From Paraphaeosphaeria minitans (lineage: Eukaryota; Ascomycota; Dothideomycetes; Pleosporales; Didymosphaeriaceae), in assembly GCA_015832175.1 (NCBI GenBank), contig WJXW01000011.1, forward strand, positions 992,001-1,056,000: a stretch of 64,000 bases of DNA, written 5' to 3'. The notes beneath the pieces were generated by a model, which saw nothing but the letters and a program-made list of their open reading frames with translations, had not been told where the DNA came from and did not search any database. Every line of letters starts with the position of its first letter. Position 1 is the stretch's first letter. Both the position numbers and the translations under genes were made by a program. Below, piece by piece: positions 44,053 through 55,376 of this stretch.

Positions 44053-45378
44053 ATGACCCAGCAGGGCACGCAGTCGTCGCGCGCGCCACGGGCACGATCC
44101 CCGCATTTCCCTCCGCATAACGCGCCCCGCGTATGGTTTTTGACAATTGGCTCGTCACCCATCGCAATCGCATTGGCCCACCAAGTCCTCGATCATGGTG
44201 ATTATGTAGTAGCTGGCGTTGTCCCTCAAGAGTTCGAGAAGAGAGAGGGTCAAAGCGAGGACTTCCGAGCGTTTCTCGAGGATGTGAAACACACTGAACG
44301 ATGGAGAGAAAGATTGAGGGTTGTCGGGTTAGATGGGAGGGTTGTTGGGCAGTGTCAGGCGGCGATCGCAGAAGCTGTTGAAGCATTCGGGCGCGTCGAT
44401 GTGCTACTTGGCAACACTGGCGAAGGTACTTCCTTCGAGAATCATCCCATGCGCAGGACCTGACTGAAATGTCCGTATAGCTGTCATTGGCGCCGTAGAG
44501 GAACTGGCCCAGAGTAGCCGGACGATCACCCTTGTGCAGGACACATTCGAAACCAATTTCTTCTCAAACGTGAACATCATCAAAGCGGTCCTGCCAACGA
44601 TGCGCGAAAGGAAAAACGGCCATATTATCATGTTGACAGGTGTCAGTAAGTTGCTCTACGAACCTCGATGTGAACCAGGGATTGACAGTCTGTAGCTGGC
44701 CATCTTGGGACCCCAGGTCTGGCCATGTATTGCTCATCACAGTGGGCAATCGAAGGGTATTGTGATGTACGTATCTACCTTGACCCACAGGCATGTCTGA
44801 CCAGAAACCAGAGTCTGGCGTATGAAATCGCTCCATTCAACATCAAAATGTCTATTGTTCAAGCAAACATGGAAGTCAACGTTCTCACCAACAAGATGAC
44901 TTCCGTTCCTCCGATGCGCGAGTATCTCCAAGCCGAAAACCCCGCACCTATTGCTCGCGACATCTTCTCCAACCTTCTCGATAAACTTGATCGCGTCAAC
45001 AATCCGTTGCCCTATCCGGAGGAGAAGTCCCCCACGGACAGCATCTCGACAACAAGCCCCGATGCTACTACGGTTCATGAGCCGACCATGGGTGATCTAC
45101 TGAGCTCGGACACCATCACATCACTGTATGCACCTCTGCCATCAATCGTAAAATCATCTTTGATAGCAGAGACTGTGCATGCGCTGACGGCTATTGGTGG
45201 TCATGATAATCCACCTGCGAGACATATCGTTGGGTTAGAGGGAGTGACCGCTGTGAAAGAGAAGTTGAAGACGACAAGTGAAGAGCTTGAGGATTTCATC
45301 GAAGTCAGTAATGCCGTAGATATCTCACGGCAATACGATCCATCATCGATGGCCTCGCTGGACGCTGGAATATCATGA
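44053..45378 (+). CDS. Atypical SDR-like protein lacking the catalytic Lys, 391 aa
   Basis: Four exons: 44053-44425, 44481-44645, 44696-44766 and 44812-45378. Introns of 45-55 bp keep the frame; 391 residues. The dinucleotide loop is degenerate (TIGSSPIA at 31-38 instead of TGxxxGIG). The active-site helix reads MYCSSQWAIEGYCDSLAYEI, so Tyr191 is kept but the Lys four residues on is Gln195, and the preceding strand reads IIMLTGVTG without the usual Ser. Downstream blocks IAPFNIKMSIVQANMEVNVL and NPAPIARDIFSNLLDKL match a fungal SDR subgroup. I infer a binding or regulatory protein, or an enzyme with altered chemistry. Its stop codon abuts the stop of the NLR gene on the other strand. Confidence 0.85.
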
Positions 45379-48300
45379 AGATTGGAGTATAGCTTTAGAC
45401 CTGTATGTTGTCTCCGATAGAATTACTTCCCCGTGCAGTTTGTCTTCCGCCGTCAATAAAATCTTCCCTGTCTCGAGTAGCTTCTTGACTACCTCATGGT
45501 GGCCATTGGCACTTGCCCACATTATCGGTGGCTGTGTGGTCCAGAGGGCTGCTCTGGGTTTGACGTTAACGTCCACGTTCTGATTGAGGAGCATCTCTAC
45601 CACGTCGACCCTGCCACTGCCGGAAGCGTACGACAGCGGAGTGCGATTAAACCTGTCCGGTTCGTCCGGCTTAGCTCCGCTCTTTAGAAGGAGGTTCACA
45701 GTCTCATAGCGTCCATGTTCTGCTGCGAAAGACAGCGAGGATCGTTGGTCGACTGTTAGAGCATCTACATTTGCACCTTCTTGAAGCAGAAGTTTCACAA
45801 TTTGCGTGTGCCCAAGCTGCGCAGCATATGCCAGAGGCATCCAGGCCTCTTCATCTCTTGTGTTTCGATCAGCACCGAAGGCTAGAAGCCGCCGGACGAG
45901 TTCAAGATTACCATACTGCGCTTCATACGAGAGCATCGTACGTTCTTCATCGTCTTTCCAGTCTAGTGCAGGGTATGTGAGCAACGATCCGACAATGGTT
46001 TCGTGGCCATTGTTTAGAGCCCAGTCAACAGGTCTCCGGTTGTACACGACGTCCTTCCTTCGAGCGGAAGCCGGGTCAGCCTCTATAAGAAGCTCGACTA
46101 TGCTTGCATATCCTTGTTGCGAGGCAAACGCCAATGCGCTCATGCCATCGCCATCAACCATACTCGCGGTTGCTTCTCCCTTCCGGAGAAGAAGTTTAAC
46201 CACCTTCTTATGGCCATTGCAGGCTGCTAGCATCAAGGCCGTGCGGCCTATGAAAGGTCCATCTGAGATCGAAGCGTCTACCTGGGTGTTGTCTTGGGCC
46301 AGCAGGTACTCGACCACGGAAAAGTGACCATTGCCAGACGCCCACGACAGCGGTGTACATCCTCGATGAAAGGGAGTTGTGCTTTTGGAATTTGAATCCA
46401 CTCCATAGGAACCGACGAGAAGTCGAACAGCGTCAAGCTGTCCGCATTCTGCTGCTAGAGACACCGGCGTGCGCCCGTCGTCACTAGGGCGATCTGCGTC
46501 CGATCCGTGACCGAGTAACTTTGTCATAACGGCGACGTGACCTTCACGTGATGCCGCGTGTATAGCTATTTCTCCATACATTTTCTCTTCAATGGCATGC
46601 GGATCTTGCGAGAGAAGGTCATTGACAGCTTCGAGTAAACCTGATTCAGCTGCAAGGTAGCATGCAGAGACCGAATCAGGGTTCGTGAGTTCCACCGCTT
46701 GCACCACGGATTTCAAGTTTACTTGATCCTTTAGCAACATGACGCAAGTTCGTACTAATTCTTCATCTTTTGTTCTGCGAGCATGCTGGGCCCAGTTCAC
46801 GGCAGCATAGCGTAGAAACGGCAATTCTTTGGTACGTGCGTGTATTTCTTCAGGGGTCTCGATTGCGATCTTCACATCTTCGAATTGTAGATATCGTAAG
46901 CAGGCAATTGCCAGATGTTTGTGGGCTTGCTGGTTGTCGAAGTAGGCTTCGAAGTGGGCTTGCGCTGTTGGGTGGATCAACCGCACGTTGCATGGTTCGA
47001 CTTGATGGTCCGTAACGACTAGACCCTCACATACGTCCAGAATTCGCTTCTCGCTATACATGTAGCCTTCTGATTGATGCATGTTGCTGACATTCTCGTT
47101 CACAGCTAACGCGGACCGCAGTTCCTTGGTCGTCATAGAACGCATTGCGAACGTAAGCCACATCAGCACTCTCTCGGCAAGCGATCGATCGCCAGATGAC
47201 ATTCTTTCCATAGCTTTCTCGTAAGTATGCTTGATGTCGGTTGGAAGACTCTTGAGTGCAGACTGGATGCCTGTCGAAGTGTGTTGCGCAGCGATGGCAT
47301 TAATATGAAGGCGCGAAAGTAGCAACATCCCTCGAGCCTGTGAAGTGATCACTTCAACAAGTTCCTTATGGTTTGATTCAGCAAGAAGCTCATTGAAGGT
47401 GCAGTGCCTTTGTAATTGAGCTTCCAAGTAGCACCGAAAGTCCTCTTTTGTTGGCGAATATCTTAATTCGACAACCGCTCCTAAATCGTGTATCTCGTTG
47501 TAGGGCGCTCGAGCAGTGAACAAAAGATTTGTTTCCGGTGTCAAACCGCGAATCATGCTGAGAAACTCGGCCCTGGCGTTTCCAGAGGCATTTGCAGGGC
47601 ACTCGTCTAGCCCGTCAATGATAAGTCGTGCTCTGGCGAAACGTTTGCTTTCCTGGTTGACAAGGTTCAGTAGCTCAGGGATACTAGGTGGCGTACTTAA
47701 GTATTTCAGTTCCGTGTACATTTTTCGGACAGGCTCTGAGAGATTGGATTGCTGCTTGACTAGTTGCTTTAGTATATTCACAGCGATGTTGTAAGGTGTT
47801 TGGGTGTCCTTCTGTAGGTAGTCAAAGAAGACGAAGAGACATGCCGACCCATCTTTCCTTGTCTCGAGATATTCGATGATATTCGATCTAGTGAAATTGA
47901 GTACAACTGTCTGCTGTGTAGTATTTGCAAATCACCTACGCAAGGATCGTTTTTCCGCATCCGACTGCATCATGATAAGTTGAGCACGAACGTTGTGATT
48001 TGCCTACTTACGAATGCCATGTATCCAGAGAGTTCGACAGTTTCCGTCAAACCATTCTTGGTATCGCTCGTCTTCGAGCACCCAGGTACCGACTTTATCG
48101 CATCTTTGTGCCAAGTTTGCCCGGTGAGCTGGAACGAAGTCCAAATGGGCTAAGTCATCGAGCCATGACGCGACCTGCAATGGATAGGATGAGCGATGAT
48201 TGGCTTGATTCACGTTTGAGTCGGCATAGGCTTACCTGCAGAACCTTCCGTTAGTATCCAATTCAAGTAACAATCATATTCAAATACCTCAATTCGCTCG

Positions 48301-48583
48301 TCGCTGGATCCTTGGTGAATGTTTAAGACTGCGCCCGCTTCGAGTGAATAGTTGTTGCTTGTCTCAATGTCTGGTCGAAGTTAAACAGGTGATACATATA
48401 CGAACATGAACACCCACTGATTCCACCATCCCCGAGATTGACTACATGCCCATCAACACGTGATCCATAGTTTGGACTAGCAACTGTGTCGCCTGTCTTG
48501 TCAACATCCCCTAGGCTCAGATGCCCGCCAGGCCATCCCGACTCGATGCGCGTTAACGAAGCTTCTTCAAGGGATGTAATCAT
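45373..48583 (-). CDS. NLR-type STAND protein: N-terminal amyloid-like motif, NACHT domain, ankyrin repeats, 983 aa
   Basis: Five exons: 48583-48418, 48370-48288, 48174-48012, 47964-47940 and 47887-45373; the joined frame is 983 residues. Residues 20-55 carry a Gly/Asn-rich motif (HLSLGDVDKTGDTV, NYGSRVDGHVVNLGDGG), followed by NNYSLEAGAVLNIHQGSS (61-78). A segment typical of fungal NLRs comes next (GTWVLEDERYQEWFDG). Walker A GILGCGKT (136-143) is formed across a 25-bp exon, and Walker B LIIDGLDE lies at 234-241. From about residue 552 to 960 there are about twelve ankyrin repeats (for example GRTPVSLAAECGQLDAVRLL, NRTPLSYASGSGRVDVVEML). Such proteins are cytosolic nucleotide-controlled receptors for non-self or incompatibility. 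The 113-bp intron after exon 2 (GTATTT donor) is the least certain. It is divergent from the SesB-like gene carrying the same motif. Confidence 0.88.
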
Positions 48584-49178
48584 GATGGATTGACGAAGTC
48601 ATTATCGAAAGATTCAGCTTGGACAAGGAAAGCAGAGTCGCCTGGGTGCCTGATTCAGATGGTGATCCTTCACGTGACTCCTATCGATAGCGAGAGAAGA
48701 GGAAGAACGATTCGGTTGCCTTCTCAGCCTTGTCGCTCATGTGAACCCTTGAGCTTTTTATCCCCTCATGCCTCGCTTGTGGATTTCAGCCCCCAGTCAT
48801 GCGAAGATAACGCCGCCACTATGCAGGTGTCGTTTCATTGACAGGCCGCCGAAATTGACATCGAGCTCTTCAATTGGCACGGTTACCTAGTGGTTCACCG
48901 AAGCCTGCCCAGCGTCACCCAAGCCCTTTAGCTAGGTATGCCTGATAGGAACCACTATCTTGTATCCCCGTGTTGCAATGCACTCGCAATAAGCATGCGA
49001 GGCTGTCTTCCAATCAAACTCCTGATGACTAGGGGCGGCACACGTACATCTACAGTATGTCAAGCTACTGCCGACAGATCCCGAGGGTTAAGATGCACAG
49101 CCTTTTGCACGCTGGGTGCCATTTCTGACTGCTCCACTTTGTGTCCATGTTGTTCCCAGTCTGGTCAGACAATTCAAA
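48584..49178. promoter_or_regulatory. Shared divergent promoter region of the NLR and SesB-like genes
   Basis: 595 bp between the two start codons, with no credible gene inside. A head-to-head arrangement allows co-regulation of receptor and effector, which is common for such fungal pairs. I see no clear TATA box or factor-binding array. Confidence 0.6.
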
Positions 49179-50574
49179 ATGATGCACTTTGAGGCCACGA
49201 GCGATCAATTTGACAAAATAATTCCAGATGGTTTGAATCAGTTGCATGATGCTGGACCGGGTGCCAAGGTCGAGTGAGGACCCTTAATCTGATGCGCGGG
49301 CTATCAAGGCTGACCTGGCAGTATTATCTTCGTTCACGGTCTAAGAGGCAATCCCCAAGATACGTGGGCAGCGTGCGATGCTGATGGAGACCGGGTGTAC
49401 TGGCCGAAAGAGCTTCTGCCAGCAACTATCCCGGAAAGTCGAATTTTCAGCTTCGGCTACCCCACCGAATTCGCTACGTTTTACCCCGTGATCAAGGCGG
49501 ATGCAGTTACGCATACTAACATAGACGACAACTCGACCGCTTTGTTAGTGAAGCTCGGAAATCGTCGACGGGAAACATCCACTGTATGCGCTCTTCGTTG
49601 TGACCAATTGCCTCGTACTGACATCTATGCGATCAGACAAATCGACCGATCATATTCGTGGCTCATTCACTCGGTGGCCTAGTCGTCGCGAATGGTTTGG
49701 CCAGCCAGAGTGGCTCTAATGAACAACGTCAAGAGGTCATTAGTAGCACGTGCGGAACCATTTTCTTGGGCACACCGTTCAAGGGCTCCGATAAAGCTGC
49801 ATGGGCCGGTCTTGCTGAAAAGATCTTTGGCATGCTATCCGACAGTAATGACCAGATCATTAAAGACCTTGACACGAAATCTACCAAGTTGCAACAAATA
49901 AGCTCTGACTTTCATCTATTGCTCCAGCAACGATACGAGTCGAAGGAGCTCAATCCAATCCAGGTTGCATGTTTTTTCGAGACCAAATCAACCGTGTTCA
50001 AGAGAAAGAAGGACTTAGGTCTCATCGTGACCAGACAATCTGCAGCTATTGCTGGATATCAACCCATGCCAATCCATAGAGATCACCGTGCCAGTACGTG
50101 TCTTTTGGTCCGATCAGTATGTGTTAGCTGACTAAAACCCGTAAACAGTGTGCAGATTCACGGATGCTCAAGACACTGGATACGTCGATATAACGGACAC
50201 CATGAAATTGATGCTCGAGAACTGGGGACAGAATGACGCTAGCAACCAGGTAGGAGCGCATGAACCTCAGCCTGACTTATCTCAAGGCTCTTCGTACTGA
50301 CTGTCTACTTCTTAGCATGGCAATATATCGATCAGCCTGGGGAACGTCAAGCAAGGCGACAACGTGCTCAATTACGGCATAGTCACGGGTCATGTTGTGG
50401 CAACAGTGAGAAACGCGAACAATCTAAGCGTTTCGCATACAGTGAGTTGGCTGGTTAGAAGATTTTTTATATGTCTAACGGGCAGTGCAGTTCAACTCAA
50501 TTGGCCATGGCACATCGGCATCTGAGGCCGCTGTCAGGGCTTGGACAGAAAAGCAAAGCTCAATAGGACTTTAA
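49179..50574 (+). CDS. SesB-like serine hydrolase with C-terminal amyloid-like motif, 374 aa
   Basis: Six exons: 49179-49273, 49322-49583, 49637-50093, 50149-50249, 50316-50441 and 50491-50574; introns of 48-66 bp, 374 residues. The alpha/beta-hydrolase fold is clear: IIFVHGLRGNPQDTW (33-47, oxyanion region), the nucleophile elbow AHSLGG (Ser130), GTIFLGTPFKGSD, and the late His in IHRDHRAMCRF (His269 most likely). After the hydrolase domain, residues 306-341 read ISISLGNVKQGDNVLNYGIV and GHVVATVRNANN, closely matching the N-terminal motif of the divergent NLR. SesB-type proteins are effectors of fungal programmed cell death, activated by NLR-templated amyloid folding of such tails. All catalytic residues look intact. 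The last exon uses the second of two nearby AGs (50489-50490). Confidence 0.88.
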
Positions 50575-51245
50575 TATTTTGATAGCACCCTGGTTGTCCA
50601 ATCACGGAGAGAACGATCTCAGTCGAATATTGATAGACATTGCGATGTGATATCAATACTGTCTGGTAGTGGTGTGGCAAGCGCGCACACTACAAAGCAA
50701 AGAACAGCGACAGTACCTAACCCAGCTATAGCCTCGTGCTTCGTTACCCGTACCCAATATTACACTGCATCTTATAAACGTTGCGCAAGACTTGCTCCAA
50801 AGCAAAGTTTGAGATACCTGCCTTGCGATTGTCCATGACGAAGGCAACCCCATCTCTTCGCGCCTTCAGCAGCACAGGGCACCGGTTCCACGACGCAAGA
50901 GTTCAGCTGAAGTGGGGCAGTACGGGGATGGAACATGATTTGGACAACCGCGAGTGCCTGATTGCTGCCATGTGCGGGGTTTGGCACCCTTTCAAGCATT
51001 ACCTACGTGCAGGGATGTACGAACCTGCATGTGCAGGCCCAAGGGTGGCGTCTGACGGAATGGAATTGTGAGACGAGGCAAGAGGCAGAGCCTCGCGTGC
51101 TCCGCCCCCCACAAGGCTGAGAAATCAGTCTTACGCCGCAGAAATTGAGCTGAATCATGGTTGTTCTATTCTCTAGTCGCCAGTACCTACACTTCTCTCG
51201 CCATGAGGCACTAGGTACACTCGATCGCCTTGATCGCGAGAACGC
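50575..51245. other. Intergenic, no gene recognised
   Basis: Between the SesB-like gene and a large same-strand gene. Short frames only. Contains the 3' end of the first and the promoter of the second. Confidence 0.45.
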
Positions 51246-54200
51246 ATGCAAACGCGCCTCGATTCGGAGGCCGCCATTGATGGCGTTGCCGAGCTTACGA
51301 AACGTACCAGTCAATTGTCGCATACGCTTTTTGACATTGCTTCCGGTCTCGTTGTGGACACCGATTCCGATTCTTCCGTTCCTCAGTCAATATGTTACGT
51401 TGCGAGTGAATTTGCTGATATTGCTCAGCTATGTATGGAAGCGTGTACTTTATTGGAGAAAAGCAAGGGACGCGGGAAGAATACCGATGCTGGAAACATT
51501 CTAGGACGACTCGATATACTCCTCCGAGAGTTTGAAGGCACGCTCAAGGACTTTGTACCCAACAAAGTCCCGAAGTGGCTCAAAGCAATGTTCCGTAACG
51601 ACAGCGCCAACTTAGTTACCAAGTGTCATTCTGTCAAGGAACCTCTCCGCTTGCTTCTATCAGTACTAAGAATCGCCGAGGTCCATCGATCCAGCAATAA
51701 GACGTATGGTGACCCAGATTTTTACATGTCGTCAGGTACTAACCTAGTCAGGTCCAATCAGAAGAAGAAAAAGAAAGAGGAAAATGCCTTGTCAATGGCA
51801 ATGGAATGCGAGTGCGCGGAGAGCTGGGTGGAAACTAACAGACAGGTTATCAAAGTACTCATGAACGCAGAACGCCGTTTGCAAAAAGGTTTTCCTCGCG
51901 AATTACTTCAGCTCCCCCATTGGCCTGAGTCTCCGGGAGCTACTGCGGCGTGGATCTACAATATGATCTTTGGAAAAATGATAAGCGCACAGCGTGATGC
52001 GCACCGTCCAACCACTAGAGGTGCGCGCGTGAAGACGATTCACACAACTGATGGTAACGGCACGGCGTCCGATAGTGAAGAAGAAGATGATGATGATGTA
52101 TTGGGATTGATTCCACCCGACCTAGAGAGAAAGCTCGACCAAAGCCCTGTCAGGTGTCAGGTGATCAACGAACTCCTCGAGAGGTGGACAGGCCTGAATT
52201 TCCAGGAAGTCAGACAAATCACTGGAACCAATAACAAAGGCCAGTCGCGCCTCCAAGACACGGCCCGCCGAGTCGTCAAGTGGTATCGAAAGAACGAGAA
52301 GTCGTCCGACGATGGAAGCTCACCACCAATACGGAACCGTGACAAAAGGAGAATACATGAGGACGACCCGAACCGTTCTTTTATGCAGGCTAAAAACACC
52401 AATCAAGTGGAAGATGAGCCCGCGGTGCCGGCGCCAACGCCTCCAAGCTCGTCAAAGCCTTCTGCAGATCAGTCAAGAGCTCCTACGCAGAGTATTCCAA
52501 GAAGCAGCGAAGTTACTCAATCCGCTGAAGAGGACATCAATGATCATTGGGGTACTTTCATCGGAGCAAAGAGTAGACAAAGACAAAAAGGCAAGAACGT
52601 GGTTGGTGAAGAGCAAGTGTACGCGAAGGATACTTCTAAAGCGTTCGTTTTCGGCGATGCTCGGATGCCTTCAAAAGCGGCCCTGGAGAAACAAAACGCT
52701 ATTGGATCCAATTCTGGACGTGATGGCAATTCCATACAGAGCCCGGGTGCAACTAGCAGCATATTGGGCCAATTTGGAGAAGACGAGCCGAATCCATGGG
52801 CTGAGACGAACCTCGAACCAGGTCAGAGTTCCAAGGATGCAGAGATATTGGTGGAAGAGATCTCTGAACTTGATCTGGATACGATAACAGCGAAAGGAAA
52901 GGCCCCTGCGCCCGTGGTAAGTCGAGCCCCATCTCCTGATATTATCTTGCCGAAAGAATCGGAGTCCTCCTCAAGCCGACCTATCATACTCCGAAATGGT
53001 ATGAAAGAAACTCAGAGGATAGGAGGACAGGAGGTTAGGATAACCGTTCGACCGGAACCGAAGAAGTCGACCCTTGCAAAAGCGTCCACCAGCGAGAGTA
53101 ATGGTCGCCGTTCACAAAGCGCGAAGAAACACACGAGCCGTCAGACATCGTCCAAAGTTGAGTTCGTGGAGCTAGAGCTGGAGCCGGAGCCAGAGCATAC
53201 ATCGGATCGCCGGTCCCGAGATCAGCATGCCCCGACACGCGAGTCCAGTAGGAACAAAAAAGACGAGGACCTGAATTCACGTGTCTCTACAAGACATAAC
53301 ACACAAAGTACACGACATCGGTCCTCCATTATACCACCAGAGTCTCAGTTGGGCTCATCAATGAATTCTTACAACACAGGCGCCGTCCTACAAAGCGCCA
53401 TCCTGCCTCCCTTGTCATATCCTGCTGGGTCTGGGTTCATTGGGCACTACATGAGTCCTTACGTTAATCACTATCCGATGGGCTTTTATGAGCAGAGTAG
53501 TTCTTCAGGTGGCAGTAAAAGCTCTGACATTGCAGAGAAGCTGAACTTGCTAATAGAAACCGAGAAGGCACGCAGATTCGCAGAGGAAGCGAGGAGAAAA
53601 GGTGACTTGGACAAGGCGCAGCGAGATGAAAAGCTTTTCATGGCTTTGGAAGAGAGGGAAGAGCAAACAAACAAGATCATTCTTGAACTACAAGAAAATG
53701 CTCGACGCAAGGAAGCGAAGTGGGAGGATGAAAAACGAAATATGGAGAACAAAGTGAACGCTCAGGCACGACTGGATGAACAGACTCGACGCCGGATTGA
53801 GCCTGCGGACACACGAACTTCACAGTATAAAGATGAGTTAGATAGGCTTTACGGAATCATAGGAAAGTTCAACGAGGAGAAGCGACGAGATCTGGTGGGT
53901 AGACACTTCCCGTTAATTCTACACGCCCACTGCATGCAGATGTGTACAATTATGTTAGCTGGGAGTTGAGACAATGACTAACCTTTTGCTACGAATACTA
54001 GGATATGGAAAGGGAACGTATGGAGAACTACGCCAACACGGAACTCGAACGCAGGATCGCAGAATGCGAAGAACAACAGCAGGAAGCTTTGGAGGAAGCT
54101 TTGGAGGAAAGTCGGCTGCACTACGAAGAACTTATCAACACGGAACAGAAAAAGGCCCAAGAAGCGATCATCCGTGCTGAAGTATACGTCAAGAAGTACA

Positions 54201-55376
54201 ATGAGGAGTTTGCCCGCAGGTCGAAACCGAAAGAGCCGTCTATAGTATCCGGCACTGCAAAGACTAACAAAGAGAAACTGAACGTCTTCGACTTTTTGGA
54301 GAGACCGGAGCAGAATTCTTCGTTGGCTTCGTCGCACGAGGCAGAAACGGGGACCGAGACCGACGATCTCATCACAGAGAGCGAGCTTCTCGAGAATCAG
54401 TGGCGCGAAAGAGGCCCATACATGCATGCAGTGCCACAGCCTCGCATCAGAAGGTTCACAGCAGCATCTGACGCTACATCTTACGCGGAGGAAACTTCGA
54501 ATATCATCGTTTTCCCACCGCGTGCAGGCTGGAACGACATGGGGCACAATCAACTTGGCAACTACTTATCGATGAGTGGTTTTACGCCTTACTTCGAAGA
54601 GCGAGAGCCTTCTAGCCTTGATCCGACTGGACGACGCGAGAAGATAGGAACGGGTGGCAATGTCCTGCGCGGCACGCTCTTCTGGCAGCCTCCAGCGTCA
54701 ACGGCGGAAGCAGATCTTTACAAGTCCCTTCGCAGCTCTGGATGGAGACCGACCTATGTTAGAACTACAGGTGAGTCCAATATCGCACATGTTACCCAGA
54801 CAACCTGACACCATTAGTCTCCGGCCAGACCTGGTTTTTCGGTGCACAGCCTGTACATGCTCAGTTCTTCAGCGGTAAGACTAAAACCCCGACGCAAGAC
54901 GATTCGTGCCCTAAACTTCCACACAGACATGTACAAGCCTCAAGTCGGCGCATATCGCGTTTCGCACGCGCGGCCCGACACGGAGAAAGAATCTCTCATC
55001 ATCAGTAAAGAACTCGTGGAGATCGAGGAGCTCGAATTCTTGGGCCACATATACAGGGAAATCGAAGGCAAGATCTTCCTAGATCCCACGCTCACGTCGG
55101 TAACGTCACCCTATCCTAGAAGCTTGGTTTCAACGGCTCAGTCGCTAATGAAAGCAATAGGAGGACATCGACCATATCGTAGCACGTTCGTTCCTTGCCC
55201 GCGAAGGAAAATATCGCAAGAGATTCCGCAACACGCAATTGCGCGCATCACAGACCAAGGTCGACATAACGGAGCTTGCGAGCGATGTAGGCGATAGTGT
55301 CAGCGAAATCTCTTTTGGTGGGGGGAGGGAGAGGACGGTCAGTCTTTGGTCGCTGTGGAGTCCTTGGTCGAGATGA
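51246..55376 (+). CDS. Large coiled-coil protein with STAND-like helical N-terminus, 1287 aa
   Basis: Five exons: 51246-53894, 54002-54770, 54818-54874, 54927-55099 and 55161-55376, joined in frame to 1287 residues. The first 150 residues are helical (AAIDGVAELTKRTSQLSHTL, NILGRLDILLREFEGTL) and recall the helical N-terminal domains that precede fungal STAND and ubiquitin-like scaffolds. The middle (about 270-750) is disordered, Ser/Pro/Glu-rich. Then comes a long charged coiled coil (KLNLLIETEKARRFAEEARRK to KKAQEAIIRAEVYVKK). The C-terminus has a conserved-looking block (GQTWFFGAQPVHAQFFS, KPQVGAYRV, ELVEIEELEFLGHIY) seen in fungal hypothetical proteins. No enzyme motif. An adaptor role in the neighbouring NLR system is possible but unproven. 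The start could lie in an unseen upstream exon. Confidence 0.75.

What the first reader, a model, noticed from the sequence alone, without database searches (positions are those of the whole stretch)
45373..50574. Divergent NLR and SesB-like hydrolase share one prion-like motif: probable amyloid-signalling cell-death pair with a possibly new motif
Seen directly: NLR residues about 22-55 and hydrolase residues about 310-341 align as SLG[D/N]V, K, GD[T/N]V, NYG, V, GHVV with only small gaps. A weaker second half follows in both (NN.S......N.I..G.S). The motif is at the very N-terminus of the NACHT-ankyrin protein and the very C-terminus of the serine hydrolase, outside both folded domains. From established knowledge: in HET-S/NWD2 and SesB/NLR pairs, an NLR with an N-terminal amyloid motif templates a clustered effector carrying the same motif in its tail. 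Inference: this locus is such a pair. The motif spelling does not match the HET-s repeats as I remember them, so it may be a new variant or a distant sigma/HRAM/PP type. Ankyrin rather than WD40/TPR repeats on the receptor adds interest.
Basis: partly seen in the sequence, partly recalled or inferred. Interest (0 to 1): 0.93.

Follow-up and report, generated by a model that had tools for sequence, protein, structure and literature searches.

The report
Fungal receptor–lipase pair sharing one motif
Two neighbouring genes of a fungus encode an immune-type receptor and a lipase-like enzyme that carry the same short end motif, which suggests that the receptor switches the enzyme on by passing an amyloid shape to it, through a motif that could not be placed in a known family.

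Summary
In Paraphaeosphaeria minitans a NACHT-ankyrin NLR (minus strand, 983 aa) and a SesB-like hydrolase (plus strand, 374 aa) lie head to head, 595 bp between start codons. NLR residues 22-66 match the hydrolase tail (about 309-350) above chance. The tail is not a local oddity: by eye it recurs in 16 of the 120 listed homologs (of 231), in the three nearest relatives it is as conserved as the fold across an unconserved linker, and the NLR still matches when its partner and the three next tails are removed. The NLR's three best tails of 120 lie in its partner's own subclade. No tested HET-s/HRAM, PP, sigma, PUASM or GDQN signature fits. Best reading: an NLR/SesB amyloid-signalling pair, a known kind, with an unplaced motif. 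Amyloid, templating and cell death are inferred. No second NLR with the motif was found; those searches were weak. The NLR also resembles one other SesB tail type more than shuffles do. The ankyrin receptor is not new: het-eN/sesB has it.

The parts
45373..48583 (-). NLR gene, exons 48583-48418, 48370-48288, 48174-48012, 47964-47940, 47887-45373; 983 aa: N-terminal motif, linker, NACHT (NPHP3_N), winged helix, ankyrin repeats
   Evidence: one residue from P0121 PMIN02_004137
48419..48520 (-). NLR copy of the motif, residues 22-55 (exon 1)
48339..48370 (-). NLR motif continued, residues 56-66 (residue 56 is split by the intron; exon 2)
   Evidence: profile alignments end at residues 65-67
48584..49178 (.). 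595-bp space between the two start codons
   Evidence: coordinates; promoter function not tested
49179..50574 (+). SesB-like DUF676 hydrolase gene, exons 49179-49273, 49322-49583, 49637-50093, 50149-50249, 50316-50441, 50491-50574; 374 aa; candidate triad Ser130, Glu234, His269 (inferred)
   Evidence: identical to P0001 PMIN02_004136
50325..50441 (+). effector copy of the motif, residues 309-347 (exon 5), in a tail of low predicted order
50491..50571 (+). C-terminal end 348-374 with a short predicted helix 359-371; less conserved

Best explanation
The locus is a two-gene NLR/effector amyloid-signalling pair. The NACHT-ankyrin receptor senses something through its ankyrin repeats, oligomerises, and brings its N-terminal motifs together so that they fold into a small cross-beta template. 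The template converts the same motif in the tail of the SesB-like lipase, which clusters and activates the enzyme, probably to damage membranes and kill or wall off the cell. Shown: gene pair, architecture, homology of the two motifs, conservation of the tail in relatives. Inferred from the HET-S/NWD2 and het-eN/sesB systems: oligomerisation, amyloid fold, templating, lipase activity, cell death. The motif (core in this lineage N-Y-G-x-[VI]-x-G-H-V-V) belongs to a tail family of SesB proteins that I could not place in HRAM, PP, sigma, PUASM or GDQN.
For: Homology of motifs; it survives removal of the partner's tail and the three next tails (27.8, 25.6, 25.3, 23.0 against maxima of 16.5-16.9 in 150 shuffles each). 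Ranking: the NLR scores 28.5 with these tails and 15.9, 13.2, 18.8, 13.4 and 7.7 with five other SesB tail sets, sigma (13.2) included. The NLR's three best tails of 120 (P0004, P0001, P0002) form the partner's own subclade, support 100/98 (12 of the 16 tail-bearing proteins were in that tree), as expected if the two motifs evolve together. In the three nearest relatives the tail is as conserved as the fold: P0002 32/39 motif, 244/293 fold, 1/10 linker; P0003 25/39, 184/293, 1/10; P0004 24/39, 183/293, 2/10. Tail 303-356 has pLDDT under 50 beside an alpha/beta-hydrolase fold. The effector motif is poor in charge (6% against 22% in the fold; NLR side 16% against 23%). Sister SesBs carry the known sigma motif in the same C-terminal place. 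Two apparent SesB-NACHT fusions, where no trans signal is needed, show no motif (L042; L044).
Against: No other NLR with the motif was found: N-terminal search, 144 candidates, only itself at E 10; wider search, itself and four others at E 0.01, the two nearest with gene models that begin inside or just before NACHT; 1357 peptides of 40 residues or more from 29 other NACHT-matching loci of the own genome, best 18.1, at the level of chance (1.5-kb flanks only, short exons not scored). So a recurrent pair is not shown. Further from P. minitans the motif falls faster than the fold (P0005 16/39 against 181/293). A profile of the glycine-glycine subtype alone is marginal (16.7 against a shuffle maximum of 15.7). 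The NLR is not exclusive to these tails: it exceeds all 200 shuffles also with a different SesB tail set (18.8 against 15.6) and is reached by 1 of 200 shuffles with the related second tail set. Plain HMM search gives E 3.1. The NLR structure model is poor (5 sequences, mean pLDDT 58.7). No amyloid test was possible.
Confidence: 0.7

Rival explanations
1. The shared motif is a docking module that folds as an ordinary small beta structure or pairs receptor with enzyme without amyloid templating.
For: Homology alone does not prove amyloid. The NLR copy is less charge-poor (16%), and neither copy has the central Gln of the PP pattern.
Against: Position, lack of a predicted fold in the effector tail, low charge, the G/N/aliphatic pattern and the presence of sigma in the same place of sister SesBs fit known amyloid signalling motifs.
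Confidence: 0.15
2. The motif is a far-diverged PP (RHIM-like) motif rather than a separate family: its core NxGxVxGxV has the spacing of the PP core NxGxQxGxN with the central Gln replaced. This would still be an amyloid-signalling pair and so overlaps with the best reading.
For: Spacing match seen by eye against the pattern printed in PMC9815663; PP is already known on SesB proteins (PMC3321046).
Against: PP patterns hit 0 of 16 tails and 0 of 17 second-set tails, GxQxG 0 of 16 and 1 of 17; PF17046, named as PP in PMC12261475, hits none of the 34 pieces. The motif is longer, with a G-[DN]-V block upstream. No PP alignment was at hand for a profile comparison.
Confidence: 0.15
3. The similarity is a relic of a SesB-NLR fusion gene that split, with no present function.
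For: SesB-NACHT fusions exist (P0125 by eye; L042; L044). The local alignment runs on to NLR residue 89, into the linker.
Against: The genes are divergent, not in tandem. The tail is conserved at the level of the fold in the nearest stand-alone SesBs, which a relic would not be. L042 and L044 show no motif between SesB and NACHT.
Confidence: 0.07
4. Chance or compositional similarity of two G/N-rich ends.
For: Plain HMM E 3.1; short region; the NLR also exceeds 200 of 200 shuffles with another G/N-rich SesB tail set.
Against: 0 of 500 shuffles and 0 of 368 pieces reach the profile score, which is about 9 standard deviations above both; the match persists without the partner's tail.
Confidence: 0.04

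Closest known systems
het-eN / sesB (and sesA) of the sigma locus of Nectria haematococca
   Same: NACHT-ankyrin NLR beside a SesB lipase; shared motif at NLR N-terminus and SesB C-terminus (PMC3321046, passages)
   Different: its motif is sigma (GxGxQFN, GGTQN), not found here; no sesA-type partner seen among ten neighbouring open frames (6 of the 10 have no Pfam hit at all), nor a third motif copy in the window
PNT1 / HELLP / SBP (PP motif)
   Same: one NLR, SesB-like lipase with C-terminal motif (PMC5485727, section 7); core spacing similar
   Different: PP pattern and PF17046 do not hit; no HeLo-like partner seen
NWD2 / HET-S (HRAM)
   Same: adjacent NLR and effector, shared N- and C-terminal motif
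   Different: effector is an enzyme; the HRAM position pattern (written strictly) and PF11558 do not hit
PUASM and GDQN pairs
   Same: recently described minor fungal motifs on NLR/effector pairs (PMC9815663, section 24; PMC12261475, section 9 part 1)
   Different: other effectors (PNP_UDP, SesA) and other patterns; the two printed PUASM peptides match no better than shuffles (reached by 283 to 985 of 2000)

Membership tests
NLR/effector amyloid-signalling pair | NLR gene adjacent to effector gene | tested here: met
   595 bp between start codons, divergent
NLR/effector amyloid-signalling pair | NLR with NOD and repeats and a short N-terminus without effector domain | tested here: met
   NPHP3_N/NACHT at 112-273, ankyrin repeats; no Pfam hit in residues 1-91 at E 1
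NLR/effector amyloid-signalling pair | effector domain with C-terminal extension outside the fold | tested here: met
   DUF676 25.0 bits over cut-off 20.3; tail 303-356 pLDDT under 50
NLR/effector amyloid-signalling pair | same motif at NLR N-terminus and effector C-terminus | tested here: met
   plain HMM weak; also some likeness to another tail set
NLR/effector amyloid-signalling pair | pair recurs in other genomes | tested here: inconclusive
   tail recurs in 16 of 120 listed SesB homologs; no second motif-bearing NLR; no other fungal genome could be read for gene context
NLR/effector amyloid-signalling pair | motif forms amyloid, templates the effector, triggers cell death | not testable with these tools
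   needs peptides and living cells
SesB-like hydrolase | DUF676 alpha/beta hydrolase with Ser-acid-His | tested here: met
   S130, E234, H269 invariant in 43 aligned proteins, triad role inferred; relatives named SesB; serine hydrolases head the Foldseek list, E near 1e-8 but query TM-scores of 0.31-0.42
sigma motif (PF17106) | GxGxQFN / GGTQN repeats | tested here: not met
   no hit in 34 pieces, 33 tails and the NLR; pattern absent; positive control in P0081, P0095, P0105
PP motif (PF17046) | NxGxQxGxN core | tested here: not met
HET-s/HRAM (PF11558) | 21-residue repeat with hydrophobic 5, 8, 10, 16, 18, basic 15, Gly 19 | tested here: not met
   (strict pattern; the basic residue is only a preference in PMC4518210); PDB profile searches list no HET-s chain
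PUASM | FxGxGxQxxGxGxF | tested here: not met
GDQN | NxxxGxQYxxxGxGDQN | tested here: not met

The most novel reading that the evidence does not exclude
A further family of fungal amyloid signalling motifs, without the central glutamine of PP, carried by two neighbouring SesB clades across much of the filamentous ascomycetes (33 tails aligned here) and read by cognate NLRs, of which this locus is the first pair seen.
Probability: 0.53. Interest if true: 0.65.

Novelty: new variant of a known kind. Interest (0 to 1): 0.55.

Why it matters
Fungal amyloid signalling motifs are found one family at a time; PUASM and GDQN are the latest in the papers that I read. A family on SesB lipases with no central Gln would widen the sequence space known to carry templated signals, give an independent test of which residues set seeding specificity, and supply a profile to find partner NLRs whose short N-termini are now unannotated. 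P. minitans is a mycoparasite used in biocontrol (recalled), so the trigger could be contact with other fungi (speculation).

Tried and rejected
Tried: N-terminal protein search for other NLRs (only itself) and a wider one (itself and four others, none with a readable motif). Own-genome search with a tail peptide found only the effector. PDB profile searches gave one weak chance-like chain each. Similarity of NLR residues 38-63 to another SesB tail set (for example P0089) is real by shuffles (18.8 against a maximum of 15.6 in 200) but much weaker than the match reported; I did not resolve whether it is distant kinship or shared composition. A third effector nearby: none among ten neighbouring open frames, of which six have no Pfam hit. 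Tandem repeats in the ankyrin region: only two short ones of low score. The promoter scan is a bacterial one and says nothing about a fungus. One search timed out without output; its comparisons were made. One search stopped before its last control, which was made. The 16 tails were chosen by eye, knowing the motif, before the NLR was scored; the 104 others include homologs with truncated models. In the tree, 12 of the 16 tail-1 proteins were included, and its 17 tail-2 proteins are 15 of the 17 in alignment A2 plus P0028 and P0037.
Full report
Where it is. The window is contig C11 992001-1056000 of a 47.45-Mb genome in 30 contigs. The hydrolase protein is identical to PMIN02_004136 of Paraphaeosphaeria minitans, and the contig length 1931927 agrees.

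Gene models. I joined introns by hand. The NLR on the minus strand has five exons and 983 aa, the hydrolase on the plus strand six exons and 374 aa. The hydrolase is identical to the public prediction P0001; the NLR differs from P0121 at residue 975 only. Start codons are at 48583 and 49179, 595 bp apart, divergent.

Architecture. The NLR has NPHP3_N/NACHT, a winged-helix hit and ankyrin repeats; its first 91 residues, scanned alone, hit no Pfam family at E 1. The hydrolase hits DUF676 over its cut-off. Ser130, Glu234 and His269 are invariant in 43 aligned proteins; that they form a catalytic triad is inference. AlphaFold2 gives a mostly confident fold to about residue 298, with low stretches at 82-96 and 177-193, then pLDDT under 50 for 303-356 and a short helix 359-371. 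Serine hydrolases and lipases head the Foldseek list (E near 1e-8), but query TM-scores are only 0.31-0.42. The NLR model is poor (mean pLDDT 58.7 from five sequences) and leaves residues 1-85 under pLDDT 50.

Is the similarity real? Pairwise: score 63 against a shuffle mean near 30; 4 of 20000 (C-terminal 104 residues shuffled) and 0 of 20000 (tail shuffled) reach it. Independent tails: of the 120 listed SesB homologs (231 found) I marked 16 by eye as having this tail. The NLR N-terminus (1-95) scores 49.1 on average with them and 28.1 with the other 104 (rank test p 5e-9; without its own partner, NLR 1-75, 15 against 104, p 1e-8); 14 of 16 pass individual shuffles, P0011 and P0012 do not. 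The tails are related to each other, so these p-values are optimistic. Profile: 16 tails against NLR 1-100 give score 28.5, P 4e-5. Nulls: 500 shuffles, maximum 17.8; 368 pieces of other proteins and window open frames, maximum 18.4. Removing the partner and up to three next tails lowers the score stepwise to 23.0, still above the maxima of 150 shuffles (16.5-16.9); a profile of the glycine-glycine subtype alone is marginal, 16.7 against 15.7. A plain HMM search of 6166 six-frame peptides of the window and 41 loci puts the NLR exon first after the effector but at E 3.1. Other tail sets against the NLR: second set 15.9 (1 of 200 shuffles as high), sigma 13.2 (14 of 200), a third set 18.8 (0 of 200, maximum 15.6), a fourth 13.4 (5 of 200), a fifth 7.7. 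So the NLR end has some likeness to more than one SesB tail type, by far the most to the type of its neighbour. I conclude homology, with the weak plain-HMM score as a caution.

The effector tail is a family. It occurs in ten named species including P. minitans (Bimuria, Cirrosporium, Clarireedia, Glarea, Leptodontidium, Halenospora, Venustampulla, Pyrenochaeta, Nannizzia) and six unnamed metagenome proteins. Motif identity equals fold identity in the three nearest relatives while the linker is not conserved: P0002 32/39, 244/293, 1/10; P0003 25/39, 184/293, 1/10; P0004 24/39, 183/293, 2/10; further out the motif falls faster than the fold, for example P0005 16/39 against 181/293. A second set of 17 tails aligns with the first (probability 95.7%, E 1e-8; 41.2 against a maximum of 19.7 in 150 column shuffles). 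In a tree of the hydrolase domain alone (43 proteins), the 12 tail-1 proteins included form one group (100/100), 17 tail-2 proteins one group (99/93), and the two are neighbours (96/92); three sigma-bearing SesBs lie apart. Two proteins inside the tail-1 fork, P0013 and P0016, lack the tail, perhaps through their gene models. The NLR's three best tails of 120 are P0004, P0001 and P0002, the partner's subclade (100/98). PMC3321046 reports that sigma extensions group by gene cluster (passages).

Is it a known motif? Patterns printed in the papers for PP, sigma, PUASM and GDQN and a strict form of the HRAM position rule hit 0 of 16 tails and not the NLR; the loose GxQxG hits 1 of 17 second-set tails. 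No member of either alignment hits PF11558, PF17046 or PF17106 at E 1; sigma is found in sister SesBs, so that test can work; for PP and HRAM I had no positive control. Paper searches listed no title or abstract that describes this motif, but figures are not held and supplements could not be opened. The unassigned motifs of PMC9815663 (sections read) and the Arthroderma gypseum sesB locus of PMC3321046 (passages; P0011 is from that species) could overlap with it. I call it unplaced, not proven new.

Other receptors. None found. The protein searches need exact shared words, the two nearest NLRs have models that begin inside or just before NACHT, and no other fungal genome could be read for context. 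In the own genome I found the motif once on each side.

Mechanism. By analogy with NWD2/HET-S and het-eN/sesB: ligand binding to the ankyrin repeats, NACHT oligomerisation, folding of the N-terminal motifs into a cross-beta seed, templating of the hydrolase tail, clustering and activation of the lipase, membrane damage and cell death. Only the anatomy is shown here. Two apparent SesB-NACHT fusions without the motif (L042; L044) agree with a trans signal; two cases are few.

Papers, as seen: PMC9815663 outline, sections 6, 19, 24 and passages; PMC5485727 outline and section 7; PMC8086366 outline; PMC12261475 outline and section 9 part 1 of 2; PMC4518210 outline, section 3 part 1 of 2 and section 18; passages only of PMC3321046, PMC4986451, PMC12881547, PMC12258605 and PMC1325252. 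The breadth over ascomycete classes and the biocontrol use of P. minitans are recalled.

Verdict. A real NLR/SesB motif pair of a known kind, with a conserved effector tail and an unplaced motif; amyloid function likely but untested.

Noticed in passing
G000:C9:1828900-1831500 (L042): An apparent SesB-NACHT fusion in the same genome: SesB domain followed in cis by NACHT; no tail motif between them by eye or by HMM (best 2.9 bits).
   Followed up: partly
L044 (JAQNCM010000443.1, 4690 bases): A contig filed under a Mucilaginibacter MAG encodes a fungal-looking SesB-NACHT-ankyrin protein with very similar ankyrin repeats; probably fungal contamination of the MAG.
   Followed up: partly
P0061, P0066, P0067, P0082, P0086, P0089, P0094 C-termini: Another recurrent SesB tail (roughly NxGxIxNLxQxDMxIxxQT) without a named motif in what I saw; the window's NLR residues 38-63 resemble it above shuffles. 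Possibly a further amyloid motif.
   Followed up: partly
P0068, P0072, P0074, P0076, P0080, P0083, P0100, P0102 C-termini: A further SesB tail type (several with a GKAVNV block and a final Gln-Asn stretch), distinct from the one studied.
   Followed up: partly
G000:C15:922571-922960 and G000:C19:465588-465977: Two SesB-like matches with the same score and extent and one stop each, each about 9 kb from an NPHP3_N (NLR-type) match; looks like a duplicated region.
   Followed up: no
window 51234-54805 (+): Long open frames without any Pfam hit at E 0.01 beside the pair; function unknown.
   Followed up: no
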